From Tilletia caries (lineage: Eukaryota > Basidiomycota > Exobasidiomycetes > Tilletiales > Tilletiaceae), in assembly GCA_032718865.1 (NCBI GenBank), contig JALUTQ010000032.1, positions 310,001 through 374,000 of the forward strand: DNA of 64,000 nt. The letters run 5' to 3'. Below, in pieces: positions 21,916 through 47,561 of this stretch (the stretch's first letter is position 1; each line of letters begins with the position of its first letter). A program made the translations under genes and the position numbers. The notes below the pieces were generated by a model. That model made no database searches. It worked only from the letters and a program-made list of their open reading frames with translations, and had not been told where the DNA came from.

Positions 21916-22610
21916 CTAACGATCTTCCCGGAGTGAGCCCCGGAGTAGCATTCCCCGGAGCTCTGCGGACTCCGGGAGACGCTCTGCACGGGTACGGAGC
22001 ACGAAGCGAGATTTGGGCGTTTTTTACTAGCTGTAGATTTGCGGAGCTACTCCGCGAAGGTATGGATGCACCGCCCGGGAGCACGGAGTGAGTTTGCTTG
22101 AATTGCCAAAAAAGCCCGGAGTGCGGAGCAGACCCCGGAGTCCGTCGGACTCCGGAGATGGCAAAGTGGGTCACGTGATGGCCAGAACTGAGTCACGTGA
22201 CCGGTTTTTGAGGGATTTGTCGGCCGAATCGGGTCGAAAAACTGTGTACTTCAGTCTATTTCGGGGCTGTAAGCTCTTGGAAAGAAATGATTTAGACTTC
22301 TAAAGCTGCAATTGAACTGTTTCGATGAGATTTGACCCTCTTCTGAGCCCATTTTGGACTCATTTCATAGCACCCCAGAATACCCCGGAGTCCGCGGATC
22401 TATTTTGCTGAGAACGGAGCCCACCTGTGAAAAATATACGAAGCACGGAGTAAATTCTTGCGCGCAACCGCGACTTCGACGGAGCACGGAGTGCTTGCCA
22501 GCTGATCACCAGAAATTTTGCGTAGCGCGGAGCTGGCCACATCTCAGACGAAGCTGAGCGGAGCGCCGCCCCGGAGTCCGGGCTCCAGAGATCTACTCCG
22601 AGTCCTTAAG
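21916..22610 (+). mobile_element. CTAAGG-type MITE, uninterrupted 695-bp copy
   Basis: It begins CTAACGATCTTCCCGGAGT and ends GATCTACTCCGAGTCCTTAAG, imperfect inverted repeats. Flanks GGCGAAC and GGCGTAC may be a worn target duplication. Two TCACGTGA palindromes lie at about 22173-22201. This copy aligns end to end with the copy split at 32030-32581 plus 47037-47177 (693 bp). The segment CGCGCAACCGCGACTTCGAC here (22461-22480) is therefore the empty-site equivalent for the 14.4-kb MULE insertion. Confidence 0.8.
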
Positions 22611-29720: not shown

Positions 29721-32029
29721 GACTTTGTCTCAGCCTAGTGCATACCGTATCACGTCCTCTCTTCGGACCACGTTAGTCATCATCATCTCCTTCCTCTGTT
29801 CCTCTGCTCATGTTGTCTTGAAGGGCCCGAAGCAAGCACGGTCCAAAGTGGCAAGGCCGTGGGTGCTGTGGGAAGGCAAGAAAAGCACGTGCACATTGTG
29901 TTGTTTGGCAAGCTTCATCATTTCGAGAGTGAAGTGCGGCGTGTGGCCATTTTGCGTGTTTGATCCGCAAACAAAAGAGTAGGGATTTAGAGCTCAAAAC
30001 CTTGGAGACACTGCTGCATTGCCTTGCCTCTCACTATGATTAACAGCCGATGGACTTCTTTACCCGAAAGTTTCTCGCTCTCGGGCAAGAAGACCCTTTA
30101 AACCACTCGTGACCGCCCAGCGTATAAGTCTAGCCAGGTCTGTCGGCTCAGAGAGTAGCCGCGGACAGAGTTTAGGTCCAGTTGTGGTTCCCTAAGCAGC
30201 GGCTCAAGCTTGTGGATTGCCCTTCGGATCCGGTTTTCCTCCGCCTGAGCTTCCGCAAGTAGATTTTCTTGGGGAATGGGGATATGGGAATGCGGCTACG
30301 CCAACGCCCCGGCGACACTTGGCATGTCGCCGTGTCACCCATTCTGAGAGGAAATGAGGGGATGGGAAGCGAGCATGCTAACCGTAAGTAAAACGGTATG
30401 CATTTCTCATCTCTCACCCAGAGGCGAGCGGCCAGCAGAGTATTCTAGAGACTGAGGCTGAACATCCAATTGTATTCATCTCATTTCCCACGACCCATTT
30501 TACCCATTACCCGATTCAACAGCCAAGCCTGCGCAAGTCAACCTTTTTCACTACGGTTTGCCCTTCCCCTTGAATGGAAGTCCTGCTCAGGCCGGAAGAA
30601 GACGCGCGGGGCCCACAATGAATATGCAGATACGCGGTCTTGCGCTATGGGTCAGTCATCTTTGCACCGTCATCAAGCTGGCGCACGGCGCACGCCAGCT
30701 TCGAACGATTGCCGTGTTTGTCCATCCAGATTTGCTAGACGCCATGCTCCCGCCGAGTTCTTCTTCACACAGAAGCGTCAGGTGACAGGTCCGTCTTCTT
30801 GCACTTGAACACGTAAACCGGCGGGAGGGCAGCTCCTCCCGCACCGATGCATTCGAGCACCGTGGTCAATTTTTGTGACCCATCTATCAGACATTGGGAT
30901 GAGAACACGTGAGATGCAGTAAATAGGCAATAATAACCTTGTTATGTTTGTGGACAGAGTACATACCCTTCCGTGCAGCAGGCGCGTCTTTCCGCCCGTG
31001 AGCGCCCACCACATAGTGGAACCTCTTCTTGATCAAGCCATGCTGGACCCCGGTCTCATCTATTTGTTGAAATCGTAGCTAGTTGCCGGTCCCACGTACC
31101 CCTGTGCTGCTGCTGGTGCTGCTGGTGCTGCTGATGAGTCCCACGGACGGACTTGGTGCAGCCAAGCACAAGGCACTGGCGCGCGCACGAGGGCGATGCC
31201 GCCGCCGGACTACTCCTGCGGTAGTTGTTGGTGGTGATGTCGGAATGCCAGGCACAAGGCGCTGATATGTGCTGGTTCCGTAAAACTGTCCCTGCGGACG
31301 AGCTGGTATGGATGTCGATGGCGACGCGGTCGGTGGTGGTGAGGGCAACGGAAGAGACTGGGCACAAGGCGCCAATCGGTACGGTGATGTGTGATGCGGT
31401 CTGCGGACGATGATGATGTGCCAGTGATGTGATGCTCAATTGCTTGTGGGTGCGGACGATGGTGGTAGTGAGCATACAGGATGGTGGTGGGAGGACAGGA
31501 GGGGAGCTGGCTATTTATAGGGGTGATGTGGAGAAGTTCGCCCAATGGGTGAAGATTCTCTGCGGGTAGTGATCATCGGACAGTGATCACTCACGTGATG
31601 GTAAGAGTGTGGGAAACGGAAGTGAGAAGTGGAGCAGAGAGAGTAGAACAAGGATCGGCCGAGATAACGAATGAGTGTGGAAATGGAGGTCACGTGACCT
31701 GCCATAGTGTGTGCGGACAAAGGGAAAGTCACAGCATATGCTGGAGCACCATTGCTGGTCGCTCGCAGCTGGAAAAAATCAACACCATTGAGAAAATAGC
31801 CGCGGGTGCAATGTTATATTTCTCTATAGTTTCACGAAGCTGAAAGCGAGTCGTGTGTCAGCTTCCATCATATATACGCTGGCAGAACAGGAAGGAGATA
31901 GCAGAGAGAAGGCAGAAAGGGGGGAAAAGGGGGGGGGGGGCGCACCAAGTCAAAGAAGGGGCTCGTGTTTGCCTCGGAAAATCCGTGCGTCTGAAACGTC
32001 CCCCCCCCGCGTCGGGCACGCCTTCCGAG
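29721..32029. other. Region without a supported gene; CAG/CTG-rich patch
   Basis: At 31105-31140 the plus strand carries TGCTGCTGCTGGTGCTGC-type trinucleotide repeats. Minus frames across 31056-31545 are T/H/S/P-rich and look like composition artefacts. A plus frame at 31853-32030 (RLKRPPPASGTPSE at its end) runs up to the left edge of the split MITE. It could continue in the sequence beyond its right edge at 47178 (GVVQELKNAAESKLTDADA), but this is only suggestive. A poly-G run lies at 31930. Confidence 0.3.
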
Positions 32030-32572
32030 CTAAGGATCTCCTCGGAGTAGGCCCCGGCGTAGCATTCCCCGGAGCTCCGCGGACTCCGGGGGACGCTCTG
32101 CACGGGTACGGAGCACGGAGCGAGATTTGAGCGTTTTTTTTTTTTTTTTGGCTTTATATTTGCGGAGCTACTCCGCGAAGGTATGGCTGCAACGCCCCGG
32201 AGCACAGAGTGAGATTGCTTGCATTGTCAAAAAAGCTCCGGAGTACGGAGCAGACCCTGGAGTCCGACGGACTCCGGGGATGGTAAAGTGGGTCACGTGA
32301 TGGCCAAAACTGAGTCACGTGACCGGTTTTTGAGGGATTTCTCGGCCGAACCAGGTCGAAATACTGTGCATTTCAGCTTTTTTGGGGCAGGAAACCCTTG
32401 GAAAGAAATGAGATAGACTTCTGAAGCTGCGACTGAACTGTCTCGATGAGATTTGACCTTCTCCTGAGCCCATATTGGACTCTTCATGACACCCCGGAGT
32501 CCGCGGAGCTATTTTTCGGAGCACGGAGTCCGCCTGTGAAAAATATACGGAGCACGGAGTAGATTCTTGCGC

Positions 32573-32606
32573 GTAACCGTGGGACAATTCTATATACCGC
32601 GCCCCC
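32573..32606 (+). repeat. Left target duplication and terminal inverted repeat of the MULE
   Basis: GTAACCGTG at 32573-32581 is the left target copy. The 25-bp terminus at 32582-32606 begins GGACAATTCTATATACCGC and ends GCCCCC. It matches the inverted right terminus at 22 of 25 positions. Confidence 0.85.
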
Positions 32607-32639
32607 ATGAAAAAGCGCGGTAAAATTCTACGAACCGCA

Positions 32640-33655
32640 TGATGCCGAAGTTTTTCTTAGCGTCAAAATACAGTTACTTCCAACTCTTATCTCCGTTTAC
32701 CTTCCTTGTTTTCCGGAACGCCTGTCCGTCTTCCGGGCACACTACTTCCGCTCGGACCCTCTGTCCATATCTGGACTATCTTCCGTCTATCCAACTTTTA
32801 TCGATCTCACCGGCTTCACATACATACAGCAAAGCGACCTCGTTGCCAGCGTCCTGTAAGTACAGCGCCATGTCATACCCTGCTCCTTGCACGTCGCTCA
32901 TGTATCCTTTTCTTGTTCTGTTAGCCTTCCCGTGGTCCCGCCTCGCTGCTCGCATCCTCGGTCAAAGGACTGTTGCTTGTCGCGGCTACCCGGCTACGGT
33001 GCGTCCATTGCGGGCTTCCTTCTCTCCCACCGTAAGCTGACCATGCGCACTCGTCTGCGCCACCATCTTTCACCCCTCCGCAACTGACTCCACACCATTT
33101 CTTCCATTCTCAGGTCCACATCACGTCGAGGCTTGCTCGTCGAGACGGCGCCCCGCTTCATGGACGACGCGGACCCTGGACTCTGCCCGCGCTCTTCGCT
33201 GCGGGCTGCCGACTACGCTCAGCTTCCATTTTCTCGGCGTGAGACGTGAGTATCGCACACCCAGACCCACATTCAGCTGCAGCGTACTTGGCGGAGCCTC
33301 TCGCTGATGCATAATTGTATTTGTTCCCTTGCCCACTTCACAGCGTTTACATCCTTCCTCAAGCACGCGCGACCATGAGCGCGCGCTCGATGGCGAAGAC
33401 GAAGCGCATATGGTCGTGATCTCAGTGCTCGTACGTGCCATGATTACACCTTCCAAGTCTGCAGACTCCACAAAGTTATTGATGACTATTTCCTGCTCCT
33501 CGTCTCCCGCAACAGTGATCCTCAACTCATTATGGCGCACCCTAGGCTGACGAGTGTGAGTACTGATTATAGCTTATGTGCATACACGCCGGCTGCCCAC
33601 ACGCAGCTCACTGGACGCTGACATAAATCCATCGATCCGATTTCTTCTGCTACAG
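32640..33655 (+). other. MULE left arm: exon-like segments without an identified family
   Basis: An acceptor-like CCATTCTCAG at 33104-33113 is followed by an open segment reading APRFMDDADPGLCPRSSLRA and ADYAQLPFSRRE. This ends at the donor GTGAGTATC at 33246. A second segment near 33460-33545 reads KVIDDYFLLLVSRNSDPQLI, then MAHPRLTS, and meets GTGAGTACT. A third frame reads AHMVVISVLVRAMITPSKSA across the same bases. These look like pieces of captured or decayed genes; no product can be named. Confidence 0.35.
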
Positions 33656-33899
33656 CTCGATTATCGCAAAGTCGCTCGGATCTGCCCAAGCGGCCAAGAA
33701 CATCAGCCCGGAGCGGACGATTGTACTCATGACCGTCACCGAGAACACCCTGCTCGTCGCCGCCCGCTACGAAGGCGTGTCCATCATCCACAATGCCAGT
33801 CCCAAGTATACGGTTCAGGATATGTGCTTCTTCCTGCAGGACCTTGGTGTACAGATCGAGGGCATTGGTACTATGACCCTGAGGGATCGAATGCCATGA
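33656..33899 (+). pseudogene. MurA / EPT-RTPC-like gene fragment carried in the MULE
   Basis: After an acceptor-like TTCTGCTACAG the frame reads SIIAKSLGSAQAAKNISPER, TIVLMTVTENTLLVAARYEG, VSIIHNASPKYTVQDMCFFL and QDLGVQIEGIGTMTL, stopping at 33897. The order T.TEN.L.AA...G...I.NA......D...FL..LG..I.GIGT is the signature of one inside-out alpha/beta repeat of UDP-GlcNAc enolpyruvyl transferase (MurA) and related EPT/RTPC-like folds, around the middle of a roughly 420-residue enzyme. Only about 80 residues are present. The catalytic cysteine loop and the rest of the enzyme are absent, so it cannot be active. Related EPT/RTPC-like genes are, as I recall, annotated in basidiomycetes. Placement between a MULE terminus and its transposase suggests capture. 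Confidence 0.5.
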
Positions 33900-34110
33900 G
33901 CCTCATCTCGTTACCGTGAAACCTTCCATCTGCTTTCGAGTTCTCCTCCCTGTTGTGCCTAAGTCCTCTCATCACCAGAATGACTTACACTTTCCCTTTG
34001 CGCAGGCAAGATATAAAGAGGGCAGGTCGCCCATCGCTCGCTGATGTTTCTTTCCCTCAGCAGCGCAACATCAGCACTCAAGTATCCCGACTAACCACTC
34101 TTCAAATACA

Positions 34111-34168
34111 CCAAGCACTCCCATTCCAAGCACTCCCATTCCAAGCACTCCCATTCCAAGCACTCCCA
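34111..34168. repeat. 15-bp tandem repeat, nearly four units
   Basis: The unit CCAAGCACTCCCATT is repeated at 34111-34125, 34126-34140 and 34141-34155, with a partial fourth unit to 34168. It lies just ahead of the heat-shock-like fragment inside the MULE. Confidence 0.85.
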
Positions 34169-34189
34169 ACTACAGCCAGCTCAGCATCA

Positions 34190-34772
34190 TGTCCGTCTTC
34201 ACCGATGCCTTCTTCCGCCCCTTCGCATGCCTTGCCCTCCTTCTTCAGCACTGAGAGGACTCGGACGGGACCAAGAACACCGCCGTCTCGATTCGCCCAA
34301 GCAACTGAATGAATGCCAGCAAACTGTTCCATGGCCCTCCCAGCGTGAGTACCTTGATCGGTCTGTATCTTCCCTCTCTCCCTCTTTCACGGAGCTGACC
34401 CTCTTCCTTCGTTTCTCAGGACATCTACGAGCACAGCGAGCACTACTCGATCACCGCCAACTCGCAGGCGCGAGGAAGTACACCAAGACTATAGGTGCCG
34501 ACGACGCCAGCAAGAAGGCCCAGCCCGGCAAGAAGATGGCCGCCAAGTCAACGCAGGCGGAGAATGTGGTCAGCGTCACGAAGGCCGACGTCAAGAAGGA
34601 GCCGCCCGACCAGCACCACGACCACGACCCACCCCCGATCATCACGGAGCGTATCTTCGGCGCTTTTTCGTGCTCTTTCATCCTGCCCAAGGCAGGCGGT
34701 CGAACGAAATTCAAAGTTTCTCGCATAGGAGACTGGCCGACTGGGGACGACGTGGATGTTGAAGGTTTCTAG
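34190..34772 (+). pseudogene. Small heat-shock protein (Hsp20)-like fragment in the MULE
   Basis: An intron at 34345-34419 (GTGAGTACC...TTTCTCAG) leads into DIYEHSEHYSITANSQ, which resembles the start of an alpha-crystallin domain (D.YE....Y.ITA.). A lysine-rich linker follows, then IITERIFGAFSCSFILPKAG, which resembles the Hsp20 strand motif ER.FG.F.RSF.LP. The two halves are in different frames, and the domain ends in a stop at 34770-34772 before the usual C-terminal strands and IXI motif. The copy is therefore broken. An upstream ATG (34194) starts SVFTDAFFRPFA and hits a stop after about 20 residues. Similarity is judged by eye. Confidence 0.4.
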
Positions 34773-34963
34773 CTTGTGCTCAAGGACAGTCTATGCCCGA
34801 CCGAGATCCCGGGTGCTTCCAACCCTCAGTGGAGACACCGCCAGGCGCCATTTGCCCAATTGGGAGAATGAGTGATGATAATTGAGATATGTTATTGGCT
34901 ACAACACGATCCTGAGTGCCAAGTCACCCGCAACTCTCCGTCAAGCGCCAACTTCTTTTCCGC

Positions 34964-37900
34964 TCAACGATGCCCTTGTTCTCTTTGACCCTTGGAGGGC
35001 GTAGACGGGTGGGGCCGAGCCCGTTTGGAGCTGTGAGTGGCCTGAGTAGACGGCTCGCTCGGTCCTTGACCTGGTGGCCTTGCGCGTGAGGTAGGAGAAT
35101 GAGGTCTTGCTCGTTTGAGGCTCCGAGTAGCCTGAGTAGACGGTTGGCTCGGTACTTGATCGGCAGACGTCGTGCCGCCCAGCTTCTGACCAACACGGGA
35201 AGAATATTTGCTTTGTCCTTGCCGTCTTCGTTTCCCTGCGTCTGAGACTCGACGCGGCTCGGCGGGATCCTTTTTACGTGCGGAAGGAGGACGACCCTTA
35301 GACCGAACGAGATGCGGGTCTCGGACAGGAGGCAGGGAGTCTTGACCCTCCCACTCGTCTCTGAAGAGCGGATGAAGACGCAGAGTGAGAAGGCAAAGTC
35401 AGGACGGTCCTTCAGCGTGTCGTGACTCGTGACAGTGATGAGGGCTTCATGCTCACCTGTACCCAGCTAACGTCCTCTCAAATTCTTCGGCTCATGTCTC
35501 TGTGGTCATCACGGCTGCTACCGCGCGGGCAGCCGTGCTCACCCTCCGGAATGATTCGGCGGGAGAAATCTTGGTCCTGGTGCTTGATCCTAGACCGAGC
35601 TTCGTCCCTGCATCATTCTTCTGTCGGACCTCGCCTTTTGTGGACGGCAGATCGTGCGTATCGGGAGAAGCATCCTCCTTTGCCCACTTGTCTCTTCGAG
35701 GAACCCAACAGCAGATACCGAAAGGATGAGTCAGTCGAGGAGTCACGAGTCAATGGATGATGAGACCTCAGCTGACATCTCACCTTTGATCAGCCAACAT
35801 TTGCTCAATTTCCCTGGATCGTTCCTCCGTGTTAATGACAACCGCAATGCTTCGAGCGCCTGCTGCGGCCCGCCCGTACGAATCAGAAACGCGGATCTTG
35901 CCCTTCGCAGCATATTCTGGCCTGAAGTCGTCCTGTTCGCCGGGGAGTCTGACGGGGATGGTTTTTTTGGGGAAGGGAACTGTGAGAATCGGAACCTTGA
36001 GTTGTACGGGCTTCACATCCACCGCTGCAAGACGGTCAAGGTGCCATCTGAGAAGGCACGATGATCAGTATAAAAGAACGTTCAACTGGCCAACTACAGA
36101 AATGAGAAACATAACGGCTGCTGCTCGACGCACCTTGGGTTGACCTGCTGCAGTTGAAAGTACTCGCCATCGCCGATCGCAGCCCACATATGCCGGCATG
36201 GGATGCCCGTTGCAATCCCTTCTGCACATGTGCAGTAGAACTTACCGTCATCTGCTACGAGCAGGATTCGTGAGGCAGGCGTTCCTCGTCGCCTGATGTC
36301 GTATGCTCGTAGCAGTGTCGTCCCAGATGCTTCGACCATAGCCGCCAGGTAAGAAGGGTCAAATTCATACTGCTGCTCGTTTTCTTGGACTGGTTCGAGT
36401 TCGCTTTGAACCTCAGCATTGTCGCCGTCGTCGCCGTCACTGTTGTTGGCCCCGTCCCAGCTCATGACCGACTCGTCGTCGTCGTCGTCGGTCATATCTG
36501 GCGTTGGGACCTCCACAAATCGTTCTGGGCTCGGGGTGGGCTTCGGGTCTTCATTGGCAAGTTTGGAAGGAAGCTTTGTGGTCAAGTCACAAGTGTCAGT
36601 GCAGCATATCTGAGAATTACGGATACAGAACTCGTGCTTGGCACTCACCTCCACGGGAGTGACACGATAAAACATCGCCTGTTTCATCGCCTTCATCGAT
36701 ACCACTATGGCGCCGATCGTGCAGTGCTTTCGCAGGATGTCCACGACGTCCTGAAAATATGACTCTGTCTCGTCTGGGTTACCTTGTAAGTACTATGGAT
36801 CACACATCTGAGTAAGCTACCATCACCAACTGATCGTCTGAACCACGTCTTCAAGCTTCGTACTCACAACAGGAGTGGCTTCGCTGGCATCACTTTGCTG
36901 ACTCGCTCTCTCCAACAGTCGAGGGAAGAGTTCGGAAAGGGTCGTCTTGCGGTTGGAGAAAAGCTTGTTGACCCCGTTTTCGGACTCGACCCGACCGGTT
37001 GTTCGTGTGTTGGCGGTAAATTGCGTACGTGTCCACGCCGCCGCCCAGCTTCTTCTGTTTGGGTATTGAATTGATTCCAGATAGTCGTGTGCTCTAGGGA
37101 ACTGTTGAAGCATGTTTCTCCAACGCAGTTCGAAGGCGACCGGGCTGGGAGATTGATACACCGACCAAAAAACGTTACAGAAGGTTGGCCATTCTTGCCT
37201 AAGTTTCGAAAGCAAATTACGGCGGACGTTCTTCCAAAGGTGCCATAGGCACAACAGGTGTCGGGATGTCGGAGAGACCTTGCGCACCGCACTGATAAAG
37301 GCAGAGTCCTGATCGGACATCACCACCGACGGCTCAAAGCCTGAAGTGATGATGAGCTGTTCGAGGGCCCATTGATGCGCCTCTTTATCTTCGCGATCTT
37401 GAACGACGTAGACAACATTCCTCGTCCTTCCGGCGCCGTCCACGACGCAGAAAATGTTGAGCGGCATTTGGTAGATGTTCCGTCCCTGTGCTACGTCGGC
37501 AATAATCACGTCCCCAAATCGTTGAAGGGCATTGACCATTTCTGCACTGCAAACAAACAAGCGTCGTAAGGCTCCTGTTTCCTTGTGAACCTGGCACGCA
37601 TACCTGAAGCCCTGATCCTTGTCCTTCTGAGCGGCGAGCCAGACCAACAACGACGCCGCATCGCCTCCCTTCTTCGCATACTCGACCTGTCGATCGTTTT
37701 TTGCCGTATTGATAATGTTGGAGACCTGCTGGAGCTTAAGCTTGGTGTCAGGAACGATCACCCGCACACATTGTAGAGCTTGGGATCTGCTGATGTTGCC
37801 TGCATTTCCGGAAACCAATCGGCGGATCAGATCCTTCTCGACCTGTGTGGGATGGTGAGGCTTGGACTGCGACTGGAGGAGAGGGTCTGGGTCGTGGTTG

Positions 37901-40067
37901 TGCGTCCAGTCGACCTTGGTGATGTGCCATTCGGGACCTTTTCCTACGAGGCGAAGGTTGATCATGGCAGGACATTTTTTAGGCGCAGTCTTGGTTCGAC
38001 GAGTGTTGGCCGGGTCGATCGTCTTTGACTTCCTAGTCTCAGCCACCGCAGAGTTCCAATTCTTGCAACGCAATCGTTTCCAAATCATAACCGTCTCTCC
38101 TTCCACAACGCCCATCTGGGATGAGTCTCGGTGCAGGACAAAGCCGTCTCGAGTCGCTGCGGCACAGCACGAAGCGATGGCCGCTTCCAGATCGTCGAAC
38201 TCGCGAGATGCCAAGCGGGTCAAGCTGGAAGGCAAAGAGGAGATCAGGCCTGACTCCGAAGAGCCGGGCGAGGAAGAGAACTCAGAGGAAGGCTCGTCGC
38301 TGGTGCTGATGGTGCTGAAGCGGTCGTCCTCTTCAAAGAGAAACGTTGATCGTAACGATTGATTGTCGTCGCTCTGCGAAGTGCGAATGAAAAGACGTCA
38401 GCTGGTGTTTGTTAAACTCGCCTTCATCCTGAGACCTCAACTCCCGGCACACTACCATTGCTCACGATGCTGGTTTTATTTATCGGCACATTGGTGTTCT
38501 TGTACCAATCCCCAAGCTGCGACAATCCTGGCAGGCTGTCAACGGACACAGCAGGAGAAGGGGCGAGGTTGGTCTTGTCAAATTCCGTTTCGTCGGACGT
38601 GGTAGGCGACGAGACGAAGGCCTGTTTGGGAGCGGTCCTCGTCTGCTCCGGCCATAGACGGGCCAACCAACAACAAGAGGCAGAGAGATGGGTCAACCCT
38701 CTTAGCTCGCGCAGCGGGGTCAAGGAGAGACTCACTGGTCCAGTCGGGGAGACATCTCTGAGGGTGTTGGTCTGCTGCTGAGAGGTCAGATTTGAGGGCG
38801 AGCAGACCACAATTTCGTCGTTTTTGATGGGAGAGTTGACGGACTGTGCATCACAAGGTTGAAACAGAAAGGGAGAGGCAAGAGGGTCAATACTGGAATC
38901 TCTAAGAATGGCTACGGCCTACGCCATGACCCTTCTTGGCTTACTTCGGGGAGTACGTGGAATGACAAGATGCACTCATCGAAAATCTGATCCCGATACT
39001 GTTCCGTTGTGGGGTATGTCCATCGCGCTTCGGTGTTGACTGTGTGAGTGATATCCAGCAGGCCATGAATCAGCATACTGATAGCAGCCAGACCGCACGA
39101 GACGCCGTCGTACTGGATGTCTGTATGAAGAGAGTCGAGCTGCAGAGGTGTTCCGTCCTGGTCAAACAACCAGTCGATGTGTGTTTTGGCTACCTTGCCA
39201 ATCTTGCCGCCCAGTGAGCAGCCGTAAAAGAGAGCGTGTTTTGAGCGGTCGACGAGGACAGTTGTCCAATGCATTGGCTCATAGTGGACCCAACCCACAA
39301 AACGCGCAGTACCGATTCGATCCAGTCGTGTACGCTCTGCAGGGACCGCCCCTCCTTTCTGGAAGGCCAGTTCCAAATCTCTGTTGAAACCTGCGCTGAG
39401 GATGATCGTGTCTGCGAGGAAGAGTTTGCGAACCTGGAAGAGATAAAAGTCGATGATGGTATCGCTGAGCTGTTGAAAAGGGCGGAGTACCTCAAAGTCT
39501 GGATACGAAACTGCGGTAAACGCTTCACCGCGCTCAGAAAACATCGACTGGTGGTTGATGGTATCCATGGCGTCGGCCAGCCGACCACGAGATGCGCGCA
39601 CGTCGAGATGGGCCACAACTTTGCGGGCATTCTCAATGCGACGTGCGTGCGAGGCGTACTCGTTCCCGATTCGAACCTGCCAAGGGCCGAGGCCCACGTG
39701 TTAAGACGTCATCGAAACGAAATCAACACAATTGTTCCACGCATGACGCAGCTAACGGGATCAAGCACTTCAGACAACTGACCTTCGTCAACGACCAAAC
39801 ACGCGTCACTCTGGGTTGTGTTGATAACCGGAATGAGACGAAGATGTTGCCTGCGTCCCGTTCCTTCTTGGATTGCTCGTAGAGGCTCTGTAGATCCTCT
39901 CGTCTCGGGACGAGTTCCGTTGGAAGGAAGGCATCTTCAATGCCTGCGGCGGTCTTGAGCCAGCGAGTACTACTGGGTTGAATGTCCGTAGCATCCGGAA
40001 ATTGAGTCTGGGCGAAGTTGCGCACTGAGATGGTTTCGAACCACGCGCGACTGTACAGCGGAACCAT
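34964..40067 (-). CDS. Ulp1 protease-MULE transposase fusion (about 1398 aa, 10 exons)
   Basis: Predicted exons (minus strand): 39783-40067, 38945-39676, 38736-38843, 38466-38642, 36868-38373, 36649-36792, 36134-36573, 35784-36047, 35543-35693 and 34964-35353. They total 4197 bases, an exact multiple of three, with all nine junctions in frame. Residues about 1-340 form a Ulp1/C48 cysteine protease: histidine in HYEPMHWTTVLVD and the Q..DGVSCG catalytic cysteine. SUMO-type isopeptidase activity is the family inference. After a low-complexity linker come a zinc-binding FAR1/WRKY-GCM1-like block (KKCPAMINLR...THNHD), then the MULE DDE domain: IIADVAQGRN (about D727), VVMSDQD (about D788/790), CLWHLWKN, and VESENG (about E899). 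A SWIM finger lies near 1098-1113 (FYCTCAEGIATGIPCRHMW). The C-terminal tail has VRSKGRPP and a duplicated PSTQAT..KRARPH basic unit. The last junction (intron 35354-35542) is least certain; an alternative would need a frameshift. Intron 38643-38735 has no stop and keeps frame, so it could be retained. No disabling lesion seen. Confidence 0.75.
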
Positions 40068-40143
40068 GGCGGCCACTGGGACTTGGTGTCTACTGTGATG
40101 ACGGATCTGAATGACTGAAACTCTCCATTGCAATAGGTATCAA

Positions 40144-40152
40144 GATATATAA
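40144..40152 (-). promoter_or_regulatory. TATA-like element of the Ulp1-MULE gene
   Basis: On the minus strand TTATATATC lies about 80 bp upstream of the ATG at 40067, an ordinary spacing for a fungal TATA box. No experimental support. Confidence 0.45.
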
Positions 40153-40159
40153 GAGTTCA

Positions 40160-41432
40160 GAGGGGGAGGAGGGTGGATCTTTCATAATCTGTCGCGTCGC
40201 AATCACCTCGATCTTCAAAGTAGTAGCATCCGCAAGATGAGAAAGGGAAGAGAGATGATCTTACGCAATGTGTCGCGGCGCAATCGCTCGGGTCTTGGAG
40301 TCATCAGAAAGGCGGAGATGATGAAGGCTTCAGTACTCTGTAGTGCCTTGCAGCGCCACAGCCCACAGGCCACTGCGCCAATATCAGTGACTCTGTTTTA
40401 AGTGTTGACTGTTGTTGAATGTTGTCTGTTGAGGGTTGAGTGAAAGGTGATTCTTTCTTGTTCATCATTACTCATCACGGGACACGGATGCAGATTGCAG
40501 TCTGCAGAGCAACTTTAGTCGTTAGACGTGTGACTACAAAGTTCTTTTGTTCTTAGTTCTTACAGCAGTCTATACGCATCGGCATGGTCGCACACTCGCA
40601 CTCGCACGATAGCAGGAGCAAGGGGGTTAGGATTGTTTGGAACAACAGCTATACAACAACTATGTTATTGGGGGAAGGAAGGAAGGAAGAAAGTGTATTT
40701 CACGTCGCCAAAAAATCCACTGAGAGCGTGGTAAGCGACCGACAACTGCACGCTCCACCAGTCCACCTCCACCACCAAACAGGCAGTGCCGTAGTGAAGC
40801 TGGGCGCACGGGAGGAGCGTTGGCCTCGGGTGCCAAAGGGGAGCGTTCAAAGAAGAGAGACATGGTGAAAGAGAAGATCGACGTCCAGAGAGAGACCCAG
40901 TAATCCCAAACTTCTCGCTACTGCCGAGAGGCCATCCTCACGTCTGCCAGCTCATATTCCCGAGAGATGGTGGTGGGTCCAACAGCCTTGTCATTGAGAG
41001 ATAAGCCTGACAAGCTGGTGTAAGATCCCAATCCCTTTAAATTGAAACTGGTTTTTGACGCTAAAAAGTTTCAGAGTCTCAATCCTAATCCGCTCCCCTT
41101 TTCTGGAGGCGATCTGGATGAGTGGCGGTCGTCTGGTAACCTGCCTCGGCTCGTGGAGGATGCTGACGCTGGGAGCGTGGCCACACAATGAGTGTGCCAC
41201 CCCCCGCCCTGCAACTCCGCGAGGAGAGTATATCAGGCAAGCGCTCTTCAATGGGCCTATGCCCGCGGTGATCCTGCCGCGTTTGGGCCCGAGCATCTGT
41301 AAGGTCAAGACTCAGGACTGAGCACGTGACTTGAAGTGTCGTTGCGTCAATGATACTCCAAACACGGGTGAGTTGAGACTCGTCTGGTGGTCTTCTACGC
41401 TAAAATAGGTTATAAATCCCTGAACCTACAGG
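40160..41432. other. MULE right arm, upstream of the transposase gene
   Basis: No supported gene. Two related phrases, TCTGTCGCGTCGCAATC (about 40190) and TGTGTCGCGGCGCAATC (about 40269), form a short direct repeat in the promoter region that might be a transposase binding site. Open frames at 40584-40868 and 41055-41321 have no motif. Confidence 0.3.
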
Positions 41433-41714
41433 CTACCATAGATACGACAATACCCTTAAGGTATCGGCGGAGAGGGAACAGACCAGCCTGGGGATCTGGA
41501 GGCGGAAGGTGGGAGCAAACGTTTCGTCGTAGTCGACTCCGTGGATCTGTGTGAAGCCGCGAGCGACCAGCCTGCCTTTGTACTTTTGGATCGTAGCGTC
41601 AGCGTTTTGCTTGATGCGGAGTACCCACTTTGATGTCACAAGATTGACTCCCTCTGGCACCTTAACCATCTCCCACGTCCCTCGTTCTGCATGCGACTGC
41701 AGTTCCTTCCGCAT
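41433..41714 (-). pseudogene. copia reverse transcriptase, N-terminal part only
   Basis: The frame reads MRKELQSHAERGTWEMVKVP, NLVTSKWVLRIKQNADATIQ and KGRLVARGFTQIHGVDYDET, then FAPTFR. This is the conserved opening of the RVT_2 domain (GTWE...KWV.R.K....KGRLVARGFTQ..G.DY.ETFAP). The sequence then loses similarity and stops near 41433, so the palm motifs with the catalytic aspartates are missing. Confidence 0.8.
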
Positions 41715-42261
41715 CGCGGCGTCTCATTCCGGCCAATCTGATCTCGCCATTGCTTAGCCTACCGTGCGCGGGTCGCCGTACGGCACATCGCTGGGGTCCA
41801 ATACCGCATAGCAGACGTCGCCTGGCTCCTTTCGCTTCCTACCCGGCGGCAGCTCCATCAGCTCCATGACCAGCTCCGCTAGTCTCGCACTACTCCTCTC
41901 CTTCCCACCCTGAATCCCAGTACTAGTCTGAGCGACGGCGTCTGCCGCCTATCGCCTCGCCCCTCTGCCTTCGTTCCGTGCCACTGTGGGCTGGGCCGAC
42001 AGCGCCTCCCACTTCGCCCTCCTACGTACCTCCGTCTCCTCCTGCTGACGCGTCAAACGTCTGCTTGTGTGGTAGTCGCCCTTGTCGCGCTCGTTGCTGC
42101 CGAGGCTCGCAGGAGCGTGATCGCCTGGCCGAGCACGGCTATCCAGCCTTGGGCCAGAGACTCCATCGTCGCCCGCGCCGGCTCTGGGAATGTGCCATGG
42201 TTCAGAGCGGCTTGAATGCGGCTGCGGAGGGGAGACCCTGCTCGAACTGTGGTGGTGGTTG

Positions 42262-42960
42262 CTACTTGCTACAGGCATCGTCACCGTCGACCGTCGTCGC
42301 TGCTGAGCCGCCAGGCACAATCGGCGGCGCGGTCTCCTCATCAAATGCGGAAAGTTCTCGCTCGCGCTCGGCTGCACGATCGTCACTCGCGTCGCGAATA
42401 AGGGCGGGGCCATCGCCGTCAACATCGAATACCACTGAATACTCGACCACCTCAACTGGCTTGAAAGGGTCCCACAGGCGAGAGGCGCCCTTGAATGCGG
42501 GACCGAGGTAGATGCATGGGCGTGATTTGGGAGAGAACTTTCCATTATGTTGGGGGGTGGGGATCATGGCCCATGCATGATGCAGTACATCCGAAGGGCT
42601 CTAACTCGGTTCTTTTTGGTGGCGTGCCGTACACGGTATATTCGTGCAGAGCCTCAGGTGGCGTCTGACTGTTGGGCAGGCCCGTCGCTGGTAGCATATT
42701 CTTGATCCGTGCTGCCGGTGCCGCTGCTGCAGGCCAGAAGAACATGGGCAGGTCCGCTGCAATCAACATCGTTCTCGTCATCTCCGTCACCGTGCGCACT
42801 GCTCGCTCCGCGACACCGTTGCTCTGTGCGGCATATCGAGGTGAGGTTTCGTGCTTGACCCCATTCTTCCGCCAGTGCTCCTGCACTTCCTGAGCCCCCA
42901 GTTCCAACGCACCGTCCGTCCTGATAGATGTGACCGGCTTGCTCGGGAACCCCTTGGTGC
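42262..42960 (-). pseudogene. copia integrase core and SH3-like C-terminal region
   Basis: The second catalytic aspartate lies in SIRTDGALELGAQEVQEHWR. The glutamate lies in SPRYAAQSNGVAERAVRTVT, followed by MTRTMLIAADLPMFFWPAAA. A frame change near 42550 leads to NGKFSPKSRPCIYLGPAFKG and PVEVVEYSVVFD, the SH3-like domain seen after copia integrase. The DDE residues are present but the frame is broken. Confidence 0.75.
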
Positions 42961-43071
42961 ACTACGTATGAAACGCCATCAGATGCTTCGTGGCCTGGGC
43001 CTTTGAGGTCAAACCCTTGAACCCAGAATCATACGTGGTGGGAGTAGTCGCAGTTGATGACCAAGCCGAAC

Positions 43072-43811
43072 TTAATCCTGTCGAGCGACTCCTACAGGTT
43101 GCTGGTTGACAGGCCCGAAGATGTCAGCATGGATCTTCTTCCCAGCCCGGTCTGCTCGCTCGCCGATCTCCAAGCGGGGGTGTCTCGTTCGGGCGAGCTT
43201 ACCTGCTGCACAGGCGGAGCAGAAGCCGAAGCTCCCTATCGTCGAGGGCATGCCAATGACCCTCCCCGACTTGGCCAGGGTCTCGAGTTGCTTCTGACCG
43301 CAGTGACCGGTGCAGTTGTGGAAGTATGCTGCTTGAGGGTCGACCTTGACTGTGCCCACGATGAGTGCGTTGTCGGCAGCGACTGGCGACAGAGAGACGA
43401 CCCAGTTTTGTCCGTTGTTCTTGGCCTTGAGGATTGTCTTGCACGAGACCGTGTGGACGACGCTTGCTTCTCGATCCTCGAAGGTGATACGGACGCCGCT
43501 GCTCGTCAACTTCTTTCCACCAATCAGATTCCGAAAACTGACGGGCAGTGCGCCACGTCCCGAAGCTTGATGCGCTCGCCGTTGCTGTTGAGCACGGCCA
43601 GGTCGCCGTAGCCCGTGACCGGCATCAGGGATCCGTCCGCACAACAGATCCCAGCGTCCTTGGGTGCCTTCTTGAAGCCGACGAGGTGGGAGACGTCAGA
43701 CACAATGTGCTGAGAAGCTGCTGTGTCGAGGTTGAAGTCGTTGCTGCCTACTAAGTCTGGGCTGGCTGTGATGAAGGCGTAGTCGAAATCGACGTCGGCT
43801 GCGTCAATCAC
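43072..43811 (-). pseudogene. copia protease and pre-integrase region
   Basis: The protease is marked by FNLDTAASQHIVSD, matching D-[ST]-[GA]-A-[ST]-x-H around the catalytic aspartate, and by LRDVAHCP further on. A frame change then leads to GVRITFEDREASVVHTVSCK. The pre-integrase zinc region FHNCTGHCGQKQLETLAKSG...CSACAAGKLART follows, then HADIFGPV with the first integrase aspartate. The break between the two overlapping frames near 43530-43640 is a frameshift. Confidence 0.7.
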
Positions 43812-44757
43812 GACGGGAGCGAGTACCGGTGGCGCGAAGCCAGAGAAGGCGTCCGGTGCTGCTGCTGCTGTGTCTTGTGTTTGTTGCGGGTTCGCCTTTC
43901 TTCCTGAGTGCGGCGAGCTGTTCCGCGTAGGGGCACTCTGCCTTCGTGTGGCCCTTCTTCTCGCAGTCCCGGCACTTGTACGGAAAGGGACTGCTAGTTG
44001 CTACTGTCTGGGGAGGACTTTGCACCTCCGGGCTTGGACCCGCAGGGCGCTTGCTGGCTCTGAAAGCCCGCAAAGGCGGCGTCTTGCCGATCTTTCGAGT
44101 CTTGTTCTTCTTCGCGCATGAGGGCGCGCTCTTCTTCGTAGATGCTGAGCCGCAGATCGTCCCACTTGCTCGTCGTTCGCTGCGTCCGGACGACGTGGCG
44201 GAACTGGACGGGCAGGTGCTGCAGGATCTGAAATTCTGAACGCAGCGCTGCTGCTCGCTGAGGCCGTGCTCCGTGTCTTCGGGCCGGTCGTGCATCTCCT
44301 CGACCTCCCCGATCCAGTTGCGTATGGGCGAGGTCGGCTTCTTGAGGAGGCCTTCGTACTGCCGCTCGGCCTCGAGGATCGTAGGGAGAGACTTGCTGAC
44401 GAGTGACGAACTCCGTCCGCAGGTACTCGAAGACCGCTTTGGCCGTGGCCCGTGGTGATCTTGTGGAGTCTGTTCCGACTTCCGGGTCCTCTTGGTGCAG
44501 GAAAAGGCGATGACGCCGAAGGTGCGGTCGTTCCAGAGCTCCCAGTCGGCCTTGGCTGCGTCGTCCCCGCCGTCTTCCGGGGGGGGGGGCGGGTTCGACG
44601 GGCTTCCAGCACCCGTCGCCCTTGAGGGTCGTCCGGACGGAGAAGGCGAAGTCCTTCCAGATGGTCCCGTCGAGCTCGGGGAACGCCTTGCGCATGGTCT
44701 CGACCCTCGACGGAGGTAATCTTGCTGTCGGTCATCTTGAAGGTGAGTCAGGCTCAT
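43804..44757 (-). pseudogene. copia gag, frameshifted, with CCHC zinc knuckle
   Basis: The coherent protein switches between frames. MTDSKITSVE starts at 44735. FPELDGTIWKDFAFSVRTTL follows in a second frame and AKADWELWNDRTFGVIAFSC in a third. Then come AVFEYLRTEFVTRQQVS and RNWIGEVEEMHDRPED. The frame ending at 43804 carries YKCRDCEKKGHTKAECPYAE, a C-X2-C-X4-H-X4-C knuckle that binds nucleic acid in the capsid. The W.......FG.I..S pattern near the N-terminus is typical of copia gag. Multiple shifts show that it is dead. Confidence 0.7.
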
Positions 44758-44874
44758 CCGCTCATAACCTGTGGAATCTGACTTGGTAGTTCATGGCTAG
44801 GAAGAAGGAGAAGGGTTTACGACGATAAGGACACGCTGCACCGTCGATCCAACGGAGCGGTTCTCCACAGTTTT

Positions 44875-45010
44875 ATAGTAGCTATATGATATATCTCACT
44901 TTACTATACTGTTTCCCGCCGAGGTGACCACTCACTTATCACTATAACTTGACTATATTATTTCGCAGAAAAGTGGTAACTCTAGTAGCTTGCCGAGCCT
45001 TGGACTTGGT
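44875..45010. repeat. Partial copy of the 28.8-kb repeat
   Basis: It shares GTAGCTATAT, CTGTTTCCCGCCGAGGTGAC, then CACT and TTGACTATA, then AACTCTAGTAGCTTG and CGAGCCTTG with 28803-28935. It lies immediately beyond the 5-prime side of the copia remnant. Confidence 0.6.
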
Positions 45011-46994
45011 TTCCTTTGAGCTCATCACAGAATGATCAATGAGAATGGGTGACTAGGAGAGTTACGGATTTGACTGAATAGTGAGAGGAGAGCGTGTGAA
45101 ATGGTTTGATTCGTGCAGACTGCAGCTGGCAGCGCCAAAGAAAAGAGAGAACAGATACGGTGATACGGAATACCGGAAGCGGAGATAAGATACTGGGCGC
45201 GTGGCTCGCGTGGCCGAGCCACGCGGTGCTCGATAACAGACTGGTGAAGAACAGAGTCTGGTTTTCTTTCACACTGCGCAATGACCCGTCACGCAGTTAC
45301 ACAGTTAGTTAGACTATTTGGGTTTGGAAACCAAAACTCACCTGGGGTTGGAAGGGTCTCCTATGTCTGTCTCGGGTAAGTTGTGGGGTCTATGTACTCT
45401 CGGCACTGGGACTAGTAGGCTTGGGTTGTACTGGCCACCTGTCGAAGACAAGGCTGGAGTAGCGAACCACGCTGCAGAGCCCCCGTAAGACCATAGGGGG
45501 CTGGCGCTGCAGAAAACACTGTTCATCCCAGGTTCCCCCCGTTCCACTGATGTCCCGTGCCAGCACCTGAGCTATTGCTATGTTCGGTCAGATGTCCCAG
45601 GGACGGGAACGGGGGTCAAACCGCAACTCGCCCACAACTTACCCGAAGAGGTGTCACTAGCTTGGCCTAAGCCGCACAACAGACGAGACACCTTCCGCAT
45701 GAGGAACAAGAAAGGGGAAAGGGAAGGAAGAAGCAGAAGCTTTAGGTTCTTTGTTTATATAGCCTCTCCCTTGATCGATCATTGATTTGTTGGGGTCAAA
45801 GCACTGACCACGACACACTTCACCCTCCCCTGATTTGTTGAGCACTTTTCCTGCCTCCAAGTAGATCAGTGCGCTGGCCGCTGAGCCGCTGACCCACTTC
45901 ATAACGGACCAGGGCACGCCGCACGGTCGACTCGCACAGTCCACGCCTCACACAAAGCATGAGCGATCCGAGCCCCGGATAAACAGTACTCAGTAGAGTT
46001 CATTTATGTAGACATGTATAAGATTTATTCTAACCCCCAAACTTCCACATTATGGTCAGAAGATGAACGATGACGATGAACGATGAACGATGAACGATGA
46101 ACGATGAACAGGTGCAGAACAGTGCCAAGCGACCTTCCATAATGACTACTGTTTGTATCGAAATGAGTTAGTATTTGCGAAGTGAACTTTAGCGTTGGAA
46201 GACTGCGCCCAATTTTGAGAACGATGTGTCAGGCGTGTCAGGGTCCAATCCCAGGTTACTCCGCCTCAATAACGCTTAACGTGATGCCTGAGATATATTA
46301 TTGTTTAGCGATCCACGCTTTGACACTTCCAAATGCGGCCGATGCGAGGTAACGGGCAGATGAGTCCTTGATTTATGACCGAGAACTAACTTTGACCGAA
46401 GGTAGGCAGGTGGGCCCGCTACATATACCCGCCCACCCAGCCGGCAGCAGTCAGCGAGCGAGTCAGCTCCCCGGCATCGGCCCCCGCTTCTTCGCTGAAG
46501 CGCTCAACCTCGACTCATTGACTTGATTATGTTACCATTCATAAAATAGTAGGCCATTGTGGACCGAGCTGGCGAAGGCCGGGTGAAGGCGGACATAGGG
46601 ATATATTCAATATATCGAGCGCTGATGGATGGGGCAGAGCATTAAGCGTTCGTCTTTCTACTGCGGATGCGAGCAGGGTCGATACCGGGCGGGGCTGGGC
46701 GCTGGGGAGGAGAGTACATGCATGATGCTCATTCCTCGCGGTCCCTACCTTGTGTTGTTGCTTGTCAGTACCTTGCTCATGCATGCGGCTCCCGCATGAC
46801 CGGGCAGCGGGCATCCGAATGGGTGTATCCTCGGAAAGTTTGTTGCAGCGAAAAACAAGAAAGCTTACGGGTTCAATCGGAGCTAACAGCCGTGGGAAGG
46901 TCCAAGCGTGAAGCTTGTTCACGTGACGACGTTGGGATGTAAGGCGCGGTCTTCAGAAAGTTCCCTTTGTTACCCGCGGGTGCGGTCAATCCCG
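45011..46994. other. MULE right arm distal part; includes a 7-bp minisatellite
   Basis: No gene is supported. At 46062-46109 the unit GATGAAC is repeated about six times with one interruption. Minus frames at 45657-45944 and 46539-46922 lack motifs. Non-coding cargo or old insertions are likely. Confidence 0.35.
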
Positions 46995-47002
46995 GGAACC
47001 GC

Positions 47003-47036
47003 GGGGGCGCGGTAAATAGAATAATCCGCAACCGTG
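47003..47036 (-). repeat. Right terminal inverted repeat and target duplication of the MULE
   Basis: The 25-bp terminus at 47003-47027, read inward on the minus strand, begins GGATTATTCTATTTACCGC and ends GCCCCC. The right target copy GCAACCGTG follows at 47028-47036. A GC-rich palindromic patch (CCCGCGGGTGCGGTC, CCCGGGAACCGCGG) lies just inside the terminus. Confidence 0.85.
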
Positions 47037-47177
47037 ACCTCGACGGAGCACGGAACGCTCGCCAGCTGATCACCAGAAACTTTGCGGAGCACGGAGCTGG
47101 CCAGATCTCAGACGAAGCTGAGCGGAGCGCCGCCCCGGAGTCCGGGCTCCGGGGATCTACTCCGGGAAGATCCTTAG

Positions 47178-47561
47178 AGGGCGTTGTGCAAGAGCTGAAG
47201 AATGCGGCAGAGAGTAAGCTCACGGATGCTGATGCGGTGAGAGTTCTGATTCATGCGCGTGTCAAGGACTGCAGATGCTCATCATATATTGTTTTCAAGG
47301 TCGCCATTCAACGCATGATAGCCAGCGTCTTCTTCAGTGCGAACGTTCAGACATGCAGCGAGAAGGGAGATCTTCCCAGGGTGACTTCAGTGAGTGGACG
47401 ATCAGCTGTCAGCATTCACCTGCCCTTGATGAATGCGCTCAGTTAGACTTTTTCATCGCAGATTTGCCTCGAAGGCTCGAACGCAACCCTGATCTCGTCG
47501 GCCCCGCTTTTGCCGAGCGGTACAATACCGGGGAGGTGCACTTTCTGGCACTCGTCTCATC
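47178..47561 (+). pseudogene. Coding-like fragment between two MITEs
   Basis: The frame reads GVVQELKNAAESKLTDADA directly after the split MITE. Downstream a frame reads DQLDFF-like FFIADLPRRLERNPDLVGPA, FAERYNTGEVHFLALVSS, and stops at 47563-47565, inside the start of the next MITE. A donor-like GTGAGAGTTC at about 47236 could open an intron. No family is recognised. The MITE insertions on both sides make a working gene unlikely. Confidence 0.3.

What the first reader, a model, noticed from the sequence alone, without database searches (positions are those of the whole stretch)
32573..47036. A 14.4-kb MULE with complete borders and an empty-site paralogue in the same window
Seen directly: 25-bp inverted termini (22/25), a 9-bp target duplication (GTAACCGTG / GCAACCGTG), and flanks that rejoin into a 693-bp MITE matching the intact MITE at 21916-22610 end to end. 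Known: 8-11-bp, usually 9-bp, duplications mark MULEs. At over 14 kb, with cargo and a protease-transposase gene, it is far larger than typical fungal MULEs.
Basis: partly seen in the sequence, partly recalled or inferred. Interest (0 to 1): 0.9.

Follow-up and report, generated by a model that had tools for sequence, protein, structure and literature searches.

The report
Giant fungal MULE with protease-fused transposase
In what is almost certainly the genome of the wheat bunt fungus Tilletia caries, a 14-kb DNA transposon sits in two nearly identical copies at unrelated sites with target duplications, so it likely jumped at full size; it carries a broken copy of part of a heat-shock gene, and its transposase is predicted to be fused to a SUMO-protease-like domain.

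Summary
The window carries a 14,446-bp element with 22/25 terminal repeats and an 8/9 target duplication, inside a MITE whose rejoined halves align to two empty paralogues. A second copy (15,704 bp, contig C39) matches it over 14,131 aligned bases with 117 substitutions, lies in flanks with no detectable similarity, and has a perfect 9-bp duplication; so a unit of about 14 kb likely transposed. The same kind of ends bounds seven complete 610-697-bp MITEs.

The core is a ten-exon gene predicted to encode 1,429 residues: an Ulp1-like cysteine protease domain, FAR1, a MULE transposase domain, SWIM and a long tail. The protease-MULE pair recurs at eight further loci in three more lineages. The protease has Cys where Ulp1 has Asp in 10 of 10 readable copies. 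I found no intact cargo gene: the cargo is a pseudogene fragment of a host Hsp20 gene, a MurA-like fragment, and truncated Copia and other repeats, carried in both copies.

Neither copy has an uninterrupted gene. Fusion, SUMO link and mobility are inferred. It is a new variant of a known kind: plant MULEs with Ulp1 domains exist, also with TIRs; a fungal one with a predicted N-terminal fusion was not found in my searches.

The parts
32582..47027 (.). whole MULE, 14,446 bp; second copy at C39:1020015-1035718 (inverted, 15,704 bp)
   Evidence: 14,131 aligned bases, 117 substitutions, 21 gaps
32573..32581 (.). left target site duplication GTAACCGTG
47028..47036 (.). right target site duplication GCAACCGTG
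32582..32606 (+). left terminal inverted repeat
47003..47027 (-). right terminal inverted repeat; the last 130 bp (46898-47027) are 81-85% like the MITE ends, and the first 58 bp of the element are 86-88% like them (from base 1 in one MITE of six, from base 15 or 16 in five)
32030..32581 (+). left half of the interrupted host MITE (includes the left target duplication)
47037..47177 (+). right half of the interrupted host MITE
21916..22610 (+). intact MITE paralogue (empty site)
33680..33882 (+). 203-bp fragment from the middle of a host MurA-like gene (C7; 85.6%)
33924..34692 (+). captured 5' part of a host Hsp20 gene (C7; 83-88%): upstream DNA, exon 1 with two in-frame stops, the predicted intron, part of exon 2 with broken frame
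34964..40067 (-). predicted ten-exon protease-transposase gene, 1,429 codons plus terminal stop; one in-frame stop at codon 1286 in this copy
   Evidence: guided by gene models P0001, P0009; P0010 agrees for exons 1-2 of a sister lineage
38945..39676 (-). exon 2: Ulp1-like protease domain
38466..38843 (-). linker exons 3-4 (38843-38736, 38642-38466) joining protease and transposase
36868..38373 (-). exon 5: FAR1-like (below cut-off) and MULE transposase domains
36134..36573 (-). exon 7: SWIM zinc finger
40609..41464 (.). truncated copy of a dispersed repeat (31 other places listed) with a 293-bp interruption
41465..44870 (-). truncated Copia retrotransposon (88% to C19 and C35 copies; gag-side LTR kept, other end lost), present in both long copies
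45365..45714 (+). 350-bp segment also found at three loci that hold related MULE genes (C4, C19, C38; 92%)
46156..46828 (+). segment resembling DNA upstream of a kinase-like ORF at C10 (80-88% in three pieces, 75% over the longer piece); capture or shared repeat undecided

Best explanation
This is a MULE DNA transposon of about 14 kb that sits in two copies, each with terminal repeats and a target duplication, in unrelated flanks, and it likely moved at that full size by its own (or a sister copy's) transposase, which is predicted to be fused to an N-terminal Ulp1-like protease domain. Shown: the ends, the duplications, the empty sites, the second copy, the shared internal contents, and MITEs with the same kind of ends. 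Inferred: the FAR1-like and SWIM zinc fingers bind the terminal regions, the DDE domain cuts and joins with a 9-bp stagger, and the same protein moves the MITEs in trans. Before the two copies split, the element took up a DNA-level copy of part of a host Hsp20 gene with a piece of its MurA-like neighbour, and suffered a Copia insertion that was then truncated; all of this was carried along as passive cargo. Untested: the Ulp1-like domain would act on SUMO or SUMO-modified host proteins, perhaps to counter silencing, and the invariant Cys at the place of Ulp1's Asp suggests altered catalysis or SUMO docking.
For: Two long copies, 117 substitutions in 14,131 aligned bases, no detectable similarity between 2 kb of flank on each side of the window copy and the 515 and 582 bp of flank held for C39, each with a duplication. 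Of nine copies with both ends, seven have perfect 9-bp duplications, one a perfect 10-bp, and the window copy 8 of 9. PF10551 1.3e-14 and SWIM above cut-off. A profile of six protease relatives hits yeast Ulp1 first at 8.2e-8, then more weakly SENP2 (0.0017) and SENP1 (0.03). Protease with MULE at eight further loci. Between the four lineages protease pS is 0.68-0.77 while pN is 0.35-0.53 (window included; without it), so the protein was constrained. Linker conserved in C12 and joined to both sides in the T. caries model P0009. A sister TIR family has its own MITE and ends beside the C12 and C4 MULE genes. The Hsp20 donor at C7 is intact (PF00011 1.5e-18), the captured copy is broken.
Against: No transcript or activity was examined. 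The window copy has an in-frame stop at codon 1286; the C39 copy has a 1-bp frame break and a 782-bp insert in exon 5, so neither need be active now. Since the two split, the coding exons changed like the rest (36 substitutions in 4,290 bp, 12 synonymous, 24 not). Pfam's C48 model is not reached by the window protease and only sub-threshold (E 0.044) by 1 of 4 proteins scanned. The single-sequence AlphaFold model was useless (mean pLDDT 33). P0001 starts inside exon 5. Only one end was found for the C12 and C4 elements. The MITEs share only the ends with the long element.
Confidence: 0.85

Rival explanations
1. An ordinary smaller MULE that grew after insertion: the window copy jumped as a short element and was inflated in place by nested insertions, so its size says nothing about transposition.
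For: About 4.3 kb are nested repeats, and the C39 copy did gain 782 and 636 bp that the window copy lacks.
Against: The Copia fragment, the dispersed repeat and the Hsp20 fragment are all in both copies at unrelated sites, so they were inside before the copies separated.
Confidence: 0.06
2. The two long copies arose by segmental duplication or ectopic gene conversion, not by transposition.
For: Both copies carry broken transposase genes.
Against: The flanks held share nothing detectable; the similarity stops at the TIRs; each copy has its own duplication, and the window copy interrupts a MITE that is intact elsewhere.
Confidence: 0.05
3. Protease and transposase are two neighbouring genes, not one fused protein.
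For: 571 bp separate exon 2 from exon 5; P0001 starts inside exon 5; no full-length fusion record was found, P0009 is a partial gene model.
Against: P0009 splices protease to linker to FAR1 region in frame; the linker is protein-like in C12 too; a ten-exon model in frame apart from one stop exists.
Confidence: 0.25
4. The Ulp1-like domain is not a SUMO protease but a structural relic or binding module.
For: The place of Ulp1's Asp is Cys in 10 of 10 readable copies.
Against: His, Gln and the nucleophile-place Cys are invariant in the 6 aligned rows, and the region was under purifying constraint between lineages.
Confidence: 0.45

Closest known systems
Hop (Fusarium oxysporum) and VdMULE1-3 (Verticillium), fungal MULEs
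   Same: MULE transposase, TIRs, 8-bp (VdMULE1) or 9-bp (Hop) duplications
   Different: VdMULE1-3 are 3.4-3.6 kb (PMC3441728 passages); Hop has 99-bp TIRs and an 836-aa transposase (PMC5014426 passages); no protease domain was mentioned in the passages seen
Mutyl (Yarrowia lipolytica)
   Same: imperfect 22-bp TIRs, 9-bp duplications, fungal MULE
   Different: 7,413 bp, second gene MudrB of unknown function; no protease mentioned in the passages seen (PMC5014426)
Plant MULEs with Ulp1 domains: KI-MULE/KIU of Arabidopsis, and MULEs of melon, rice and grapevine
   Same: MULE carrying an Ulp1-like domain; examples in direct orientation are described in melon, rice and grapevine, and in TIR-MULEs in melon and grapevine (PMC2528002 section 10)
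   Different: KI-MULE itself is non-TIR with the domain in reverse orientation; in grapevine the Ulp1 sequence lies downstream of the transposase ORF. Here it lies upstream, is predicted to be the N-terminal part of the transposase protein, has Cys at the Asp place, and the host is a fungus
Plant CACTA elements with Ulp1 (rice proteins with Tnp2 and ULP1 domains)
   Same: transposase-type and Ulp1 domains in one protein (PMC2528002 section 10)
   Different: CACTA superfamily, not MULE; plant
Pack-MULEs (rice and others)
   Same: DNA-level copy of host gene fragments between MULE TIRs
   Different: here the element keeps its transposase gene; a review states that no Pack-MULE of one study exceeded 7 kb (PMC6431247 passage)
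hAT carrying histone H3 in Pseudocercospora fijiensis
   Same: fungal DNA transposon that took up a housekeeping gene piece
   Different: hAT superfamily, 8-bp duplications, about 9.5 kb (PMC6710886 passages)
Abermu MULEs (plants)
   Same: unusually large MULE; the maize example spans about 14.9 kb by its listed coordinates and is marked as nested by another element
   Different: plant; the passages seen do not mention Ulp1 (PMC9168764)

Membership tests
Mutator/MULE superfamily | MULE-type DDE transposase domain | tested here: met
   PF10551 1.3e-14, 54.9 bits over cut-off 27.6; Transposase_mut 23.2 over 21
Mutator/MULE superfamily | 8-11-bp (mostly 9) target duplication | tested here: met
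   nine copies: seven exact 9 bp, one exact 10 bp, one 8 of 9
Mutator/MULE superfamily | terminal inverted repeats shared by autonomous-type and non-autonomous copies | tested here: met
Mutator/MULE superfamily | catalytic activity of the transposase | not testable with these tools
   no assay; both copies carry gene-breaking changes
Pack-MULE | captured host gene fragment between the TIRs | tested here: met
   Hsp20 and MurA-like fragments from C7
Pack-MULE | non-autonomous, transposase provided in trans | tested here: not met
   a transposase gene is present, though broken in both copies
KI-MULE / KIU | Ulp1-like domain in a MULE | tested here: met
   profile hit to Ulp1 8.2e-8
KI-MULE / KIU | non-TIR ends | tested here: not met
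   25-bp TIRs; but TIR-MULEs with Ulp1 exist in melon and grapevine
KI-MULE / KIU | Ulp1 domain in reverse orientation to the transposase | tested here: not met
   same strand, predicted single gene
Peptidase C48 (Ulp1/SENP) | sequence relation to Ulp1 | tested here: met
   but Pfam C48 not over cut-off in any of 4 proteins
Peptidase C48 (Ulp1/SENP) | His-Asp-Cys triad with Gln (recalled definition) | tested here: not met
   His, Gln and Cys invariant in 6 rows; the Asp place is Cys in 10 of 10
Starship giant elements | tyrosine-recombinase captain (recalled definition) | tested here: not met
   no such domain among the 20 element ORFs scanned (of 35 ORFs of 120 aa or more listed for the region); TIRs and 9-bp duplications instead

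The most novel reading that the evidence does not exclude
A fungal MULE lineage has welded a re-tuned SUMO protease onto its transposase: the Asp-to-Cys Ulp1 module docks on or strips SUMO from host silencing or repair factors at the element, which lets very large copies, loaded with host-gene and retroelement cargo, go on transposing.
Probability: 0.25. Interest if true: 0.8.

Novelty: new variant of a known kind. Interest (0 to 1): 0.57.

Why it matters
Cut-and-paste elements are thought to lose efficiency with size (PMC6431247 passage). Here the same 14-kb content, with a fossil retroelement inside, lies at two sites under target duplications, so a unit this long very probably transposed. 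It shows capture of a host gene fragment by a fungal MULE, and a protease-MULE arrangement kept across four diverged lineages in one fungal genome. Plant MULEs and CACTA elements took up Ulp1 domains, MULEs perhaps several times (PMC2528002); a fungal case suggests that transposons have turned to the SUMO system more widely. The published T. caries repeat table shown has no Mutator row, and the words Mutator and MULE do not occur in that paper's text, although PF10551 has 97 matches at E <= 0.001 in this genome (94 over the curated cut-off).

Tried and rejected
Post-insertion inflation and segmental duplication were tested and rejected (see rivals). The possibility that the cargo holds a working accessory gene was tested by Pfam on 20 ORFs of the element (one search lists 35 of 120 aa or more in 32000-47300, and shorter ones were not scanned) and on two more: the only families at E <= 0.01 were transposase-related (MULE, ZSWIM RNaseH-like, FAR1, Transposase_mut, SWIM) and Copia-related (gag_pre-integrs, Pol_BBD); two further rows (E 0.16 and 0.76) are noise. 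The C10 match was first taken for a second capture; C10 holds two inverted copies with 75-88% similarity in pieces, so it stays undecided. The 40609-41464 repeat was first taken for a complete element ending at 41464; the five other copies that I read run on past that point, so it is truncated there, directly against the truncated Copia. A single-sequence fold of the protease failed (pLDDT 33), so no fold search was run. I did not send the family alignment to the fold tool, because its rule names the sources it accepts and loci from the fetch from genomes are not among them. Left ends for the C12 and C4 elements: not found with up to 3 mismatches. DNA searches of the genome are lower bounds (one search scored 38 of 228 candidates and listed neither the C39 copy nor the window itself).

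Literature: nine searches. No title or abstract beginning that they listed was about a fungal MULE with an Ulp1-like domain or a Tilletia MULE; several lists were cut (15 of 24, 12 of 747, 10 of 82, 10 of 458, 8 of 12), so this is weak evidence of absence. Papers were seen as passages and one as a whole section. On re-checking, one search showed that plant MULEs with TIRs and direct-orientation Ulp1 exist and that rice has proteins with Tnp2 and ULP1; I lowered my interest score a little for it.
Full report
What was checked. The terminal repeats are 32582-32606 and 47003-47027, 22 of 25, flanked by GTAACCGTG and GCAACCGTG. The left 25-mer, reverse-complemented, has no other match better than 16 of 25 on the window's + strand. 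Removing the element joins 32030-32581 to 47037-47177, and this MITE aligns straight across the junction to 21916-22600, 603 of 693 columns. A second intact paralogue lies at C33:718383-719058.

Where it is from. I take it as that assembly (inference from two exact numbers).

A second full copy. The TIR pattern occurs 20 times, 10 on each strand, against 0 and 1 for the control pattern. Sixteen sites pair up: the window element, a 15,704-bp element at C39:1020015-1035718, and six MITEs of 610-697 bp. The four others are three MITEs with a lost or decayed end (C22, C28, C34) and a 52-bp scrap (C3). A seventh complete MITE, with more diverged ends, is at C4:2156484-2157154, 91%. Of the nine copies with both ends, seven have a perfect 9-bp duplication, one a perfect 10-bp, and the window copy 8 of 9. 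The two long copies align over 14,131 bases with 117 substitutions (0.83%) and 21 gaps. Flanks of 2 kb on each side of the window copy have no match in the 515 and 582 bp held around C39. The C39 copy also has a 782-bp insert with an 8-bp duplication and a 636-bp insert that the window copy lacks. The parsimonious reading is that a unit of about 14 kb transposed.

The gene. On the minus strand, ten exons from 40067 to 34964 read in frame as 1,429 codons, with one in-frame stop at codon 1286 in the window copy. The C39 copy has no stop there but has a 1-bp frame break and the 782-bp insert in exon 5. The model was guided by P0001 (T. controversa, 859 aa: MULE to the C-terminal end) and P0009 (T. 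caries, partial: protease, linker and FAR1 region in one frame); P0010 (T. controversa, partial) joins protease exons 1 and 2 in a sister lineage in the same way. Domains: PF10551 1.3e-14, SWIM above cut-off, FAR1 just below cut-off. Whether protease and transposase are really one protein is inferred; P0001 starts within exon 5, and no transcript was seen. Between the two copies, exon and non-exon DNA differ alike, and 24 of 36 exon changes are non-synonymous: both drifted since the split.

The protease. A profile of six relatives (alignment A1) finds yeast Ulp1 first in the PDB at 8.2e-8, then SENP2 (0.0017) and SENP1 (0.03). Pfam's C48 model is sub-threshold in one of four proteins scanned and absent in the window protein. 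His-Trp, Gln-x5-Cys and a further Cys are invariant in the six rows. In the alignment to Ulp1 that further Cys stands where Ulp1 has Asp (that it is the catalytic Asp is recalled knowledge). It is Cys in all 10 copies where I could read it: window, C39, C12, C36, C32, C35 twice, C34, C5, C15. Protease hits accompany MULE hits at eight loci besides the two long copies, which fall into three further lineages by identity. Between lineages protease pS is 0.68-0.77 and pN 0.35-0.53 with the window included (without it gives 0.70-0.85 and 0.41-0.49); within recent copies there is no clear sign of constraint, as usual for transposons. In the large protein database only Tilletia proteins were found for the protease, one and two hits.

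A sister family. Ends reading GGACAATTCTAACCGCCGCGCCCG occur at six places, three on each strand, control 0 and 0. One pair bounds a 741-bp MITE with a perfect 9-bp duplication; the same ends lie beside the MULE genes at C12 (protease present) and C4 (72% relative, no protease hit). So the link between this type of end and this type of gene is seen twice.

The cargo. In a search with 32640-34760, the stretch 33680-34692 matched, besides the two long copies, only C7. C7 holds two tandem Hsp20 genes (one scanned: PF00011 1.5e-18; the other has the same exon 2 translation) next to a MurA-like gene (PF00275, full length). The element's copy contains upstream DNA, exon 1 with two in-frame stops, the predicted intron, and a broken part of exon 2, plus 203 bp from the middle of the MurA-like gene. 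The intact donor, the retained intron and the broken copy point to DNA-level capture from host to element. Window 41465-44870 is a Copia copy (88% to longer copies at C19 and C35; at C19 with 100-bp LTRs and, by eye, a GGTGT duplication) that lost one end, lying directly against a truncated dispersed repeat. Both are in both long copies. Nothing but transposase- and Copia-related Pfam families came up at E <= 0.01 in the 20 element ORFs scanned.

Against known kinds. Fungal MULEs whose sizes I saw are 3.4-3.6 kb (Verticillium) and 7.4 kb (Mutyl); arthropod MULEs run from 1.4 to 10.0 kb; after removal of nested insertions over 95% of maize and rice candidate coding MULEs are 2-10 kb. Larger plant examples with nested insertions exist (maize Abermu, about 14.9 kb by its coordinates), so size alone is not unheard of. 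Ulp1 domains are known in plant MULEs: KI-MULE is non-TIR with the domain reversed, but melon, rice and grapevine have others in both orientations, melon and grapevine also in TIR-MULEs, in grapevine downstream of the transposase ORF; and rice has proteins with Tnp2 (CACTA) and ULP1 domains. Pack-MULEs capture genes but are moved in trans. This element is therefore a MULE (member), works partly like a Pack-MULE and partly like the plant Ulp1-MULEs. What I did not find elsewhere is a fungal host, the N-terminal predicted fusion, and Cys at the Asp place.

Limits. No activity, transcription or population data; genome searches give lower bounds; the structure prediction failed; the donor status of C10 for 46156-46828 is open; the literature searches saw capped lists.

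Noticed in passing
L055:2175-3626 (C7:390674-392125), minus strand: A full-length EPSP-synthase/MurA-like gene with a sub-threshold N-terminal HTH_3 match in a fungus: a bacterial-looking gene beside tandem Hsp20 genes. Contamination seems unlikely, since the element carries a fragment of the same gene.
   Followed up: partly
C39 copy: inserts in L029 and L030: Two insertions absent from the window copy: 782 bp with an 8-bp duplication CCTGAAGT and ends TAAGGAAGAGCACGG, and 636 bp with ends TACACCGCC at a TA (by eye).
   Followed up: partly
L054 (C12:20492) and L063 (C4:1025114): The 9 bp next to the sister-family ends at C12 and C4 are reverse complements of each other (TTTATATGC and GCATATAAA), perhaps a target preference.
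   Followed up: no
C33:709000-734500 (L043-L045) against the whole window: Many stretches of the window flanks (20.8-21.6, 30.7-32.0, 47.6-49.7, 51.1-51.5 kb) recur in this 25-kb locus at about 82-96%, together with an empty MITE and a relic of the transposase C-terminus: two related repeat-rich regions.
   Followed up: no
window 41464/41465: Two unrelated repeats are both truncated exactly at this junction, in both long copies: a recombination or deletion scar inside the ancestral element.
   Followed up: partly
left ends, window 32596 and C39: The C39 copy has 30 bp more at this end, between two ACCGCGCCCC repeats; the window copy likely lost them by slippage or recombination.
   Followed up: no
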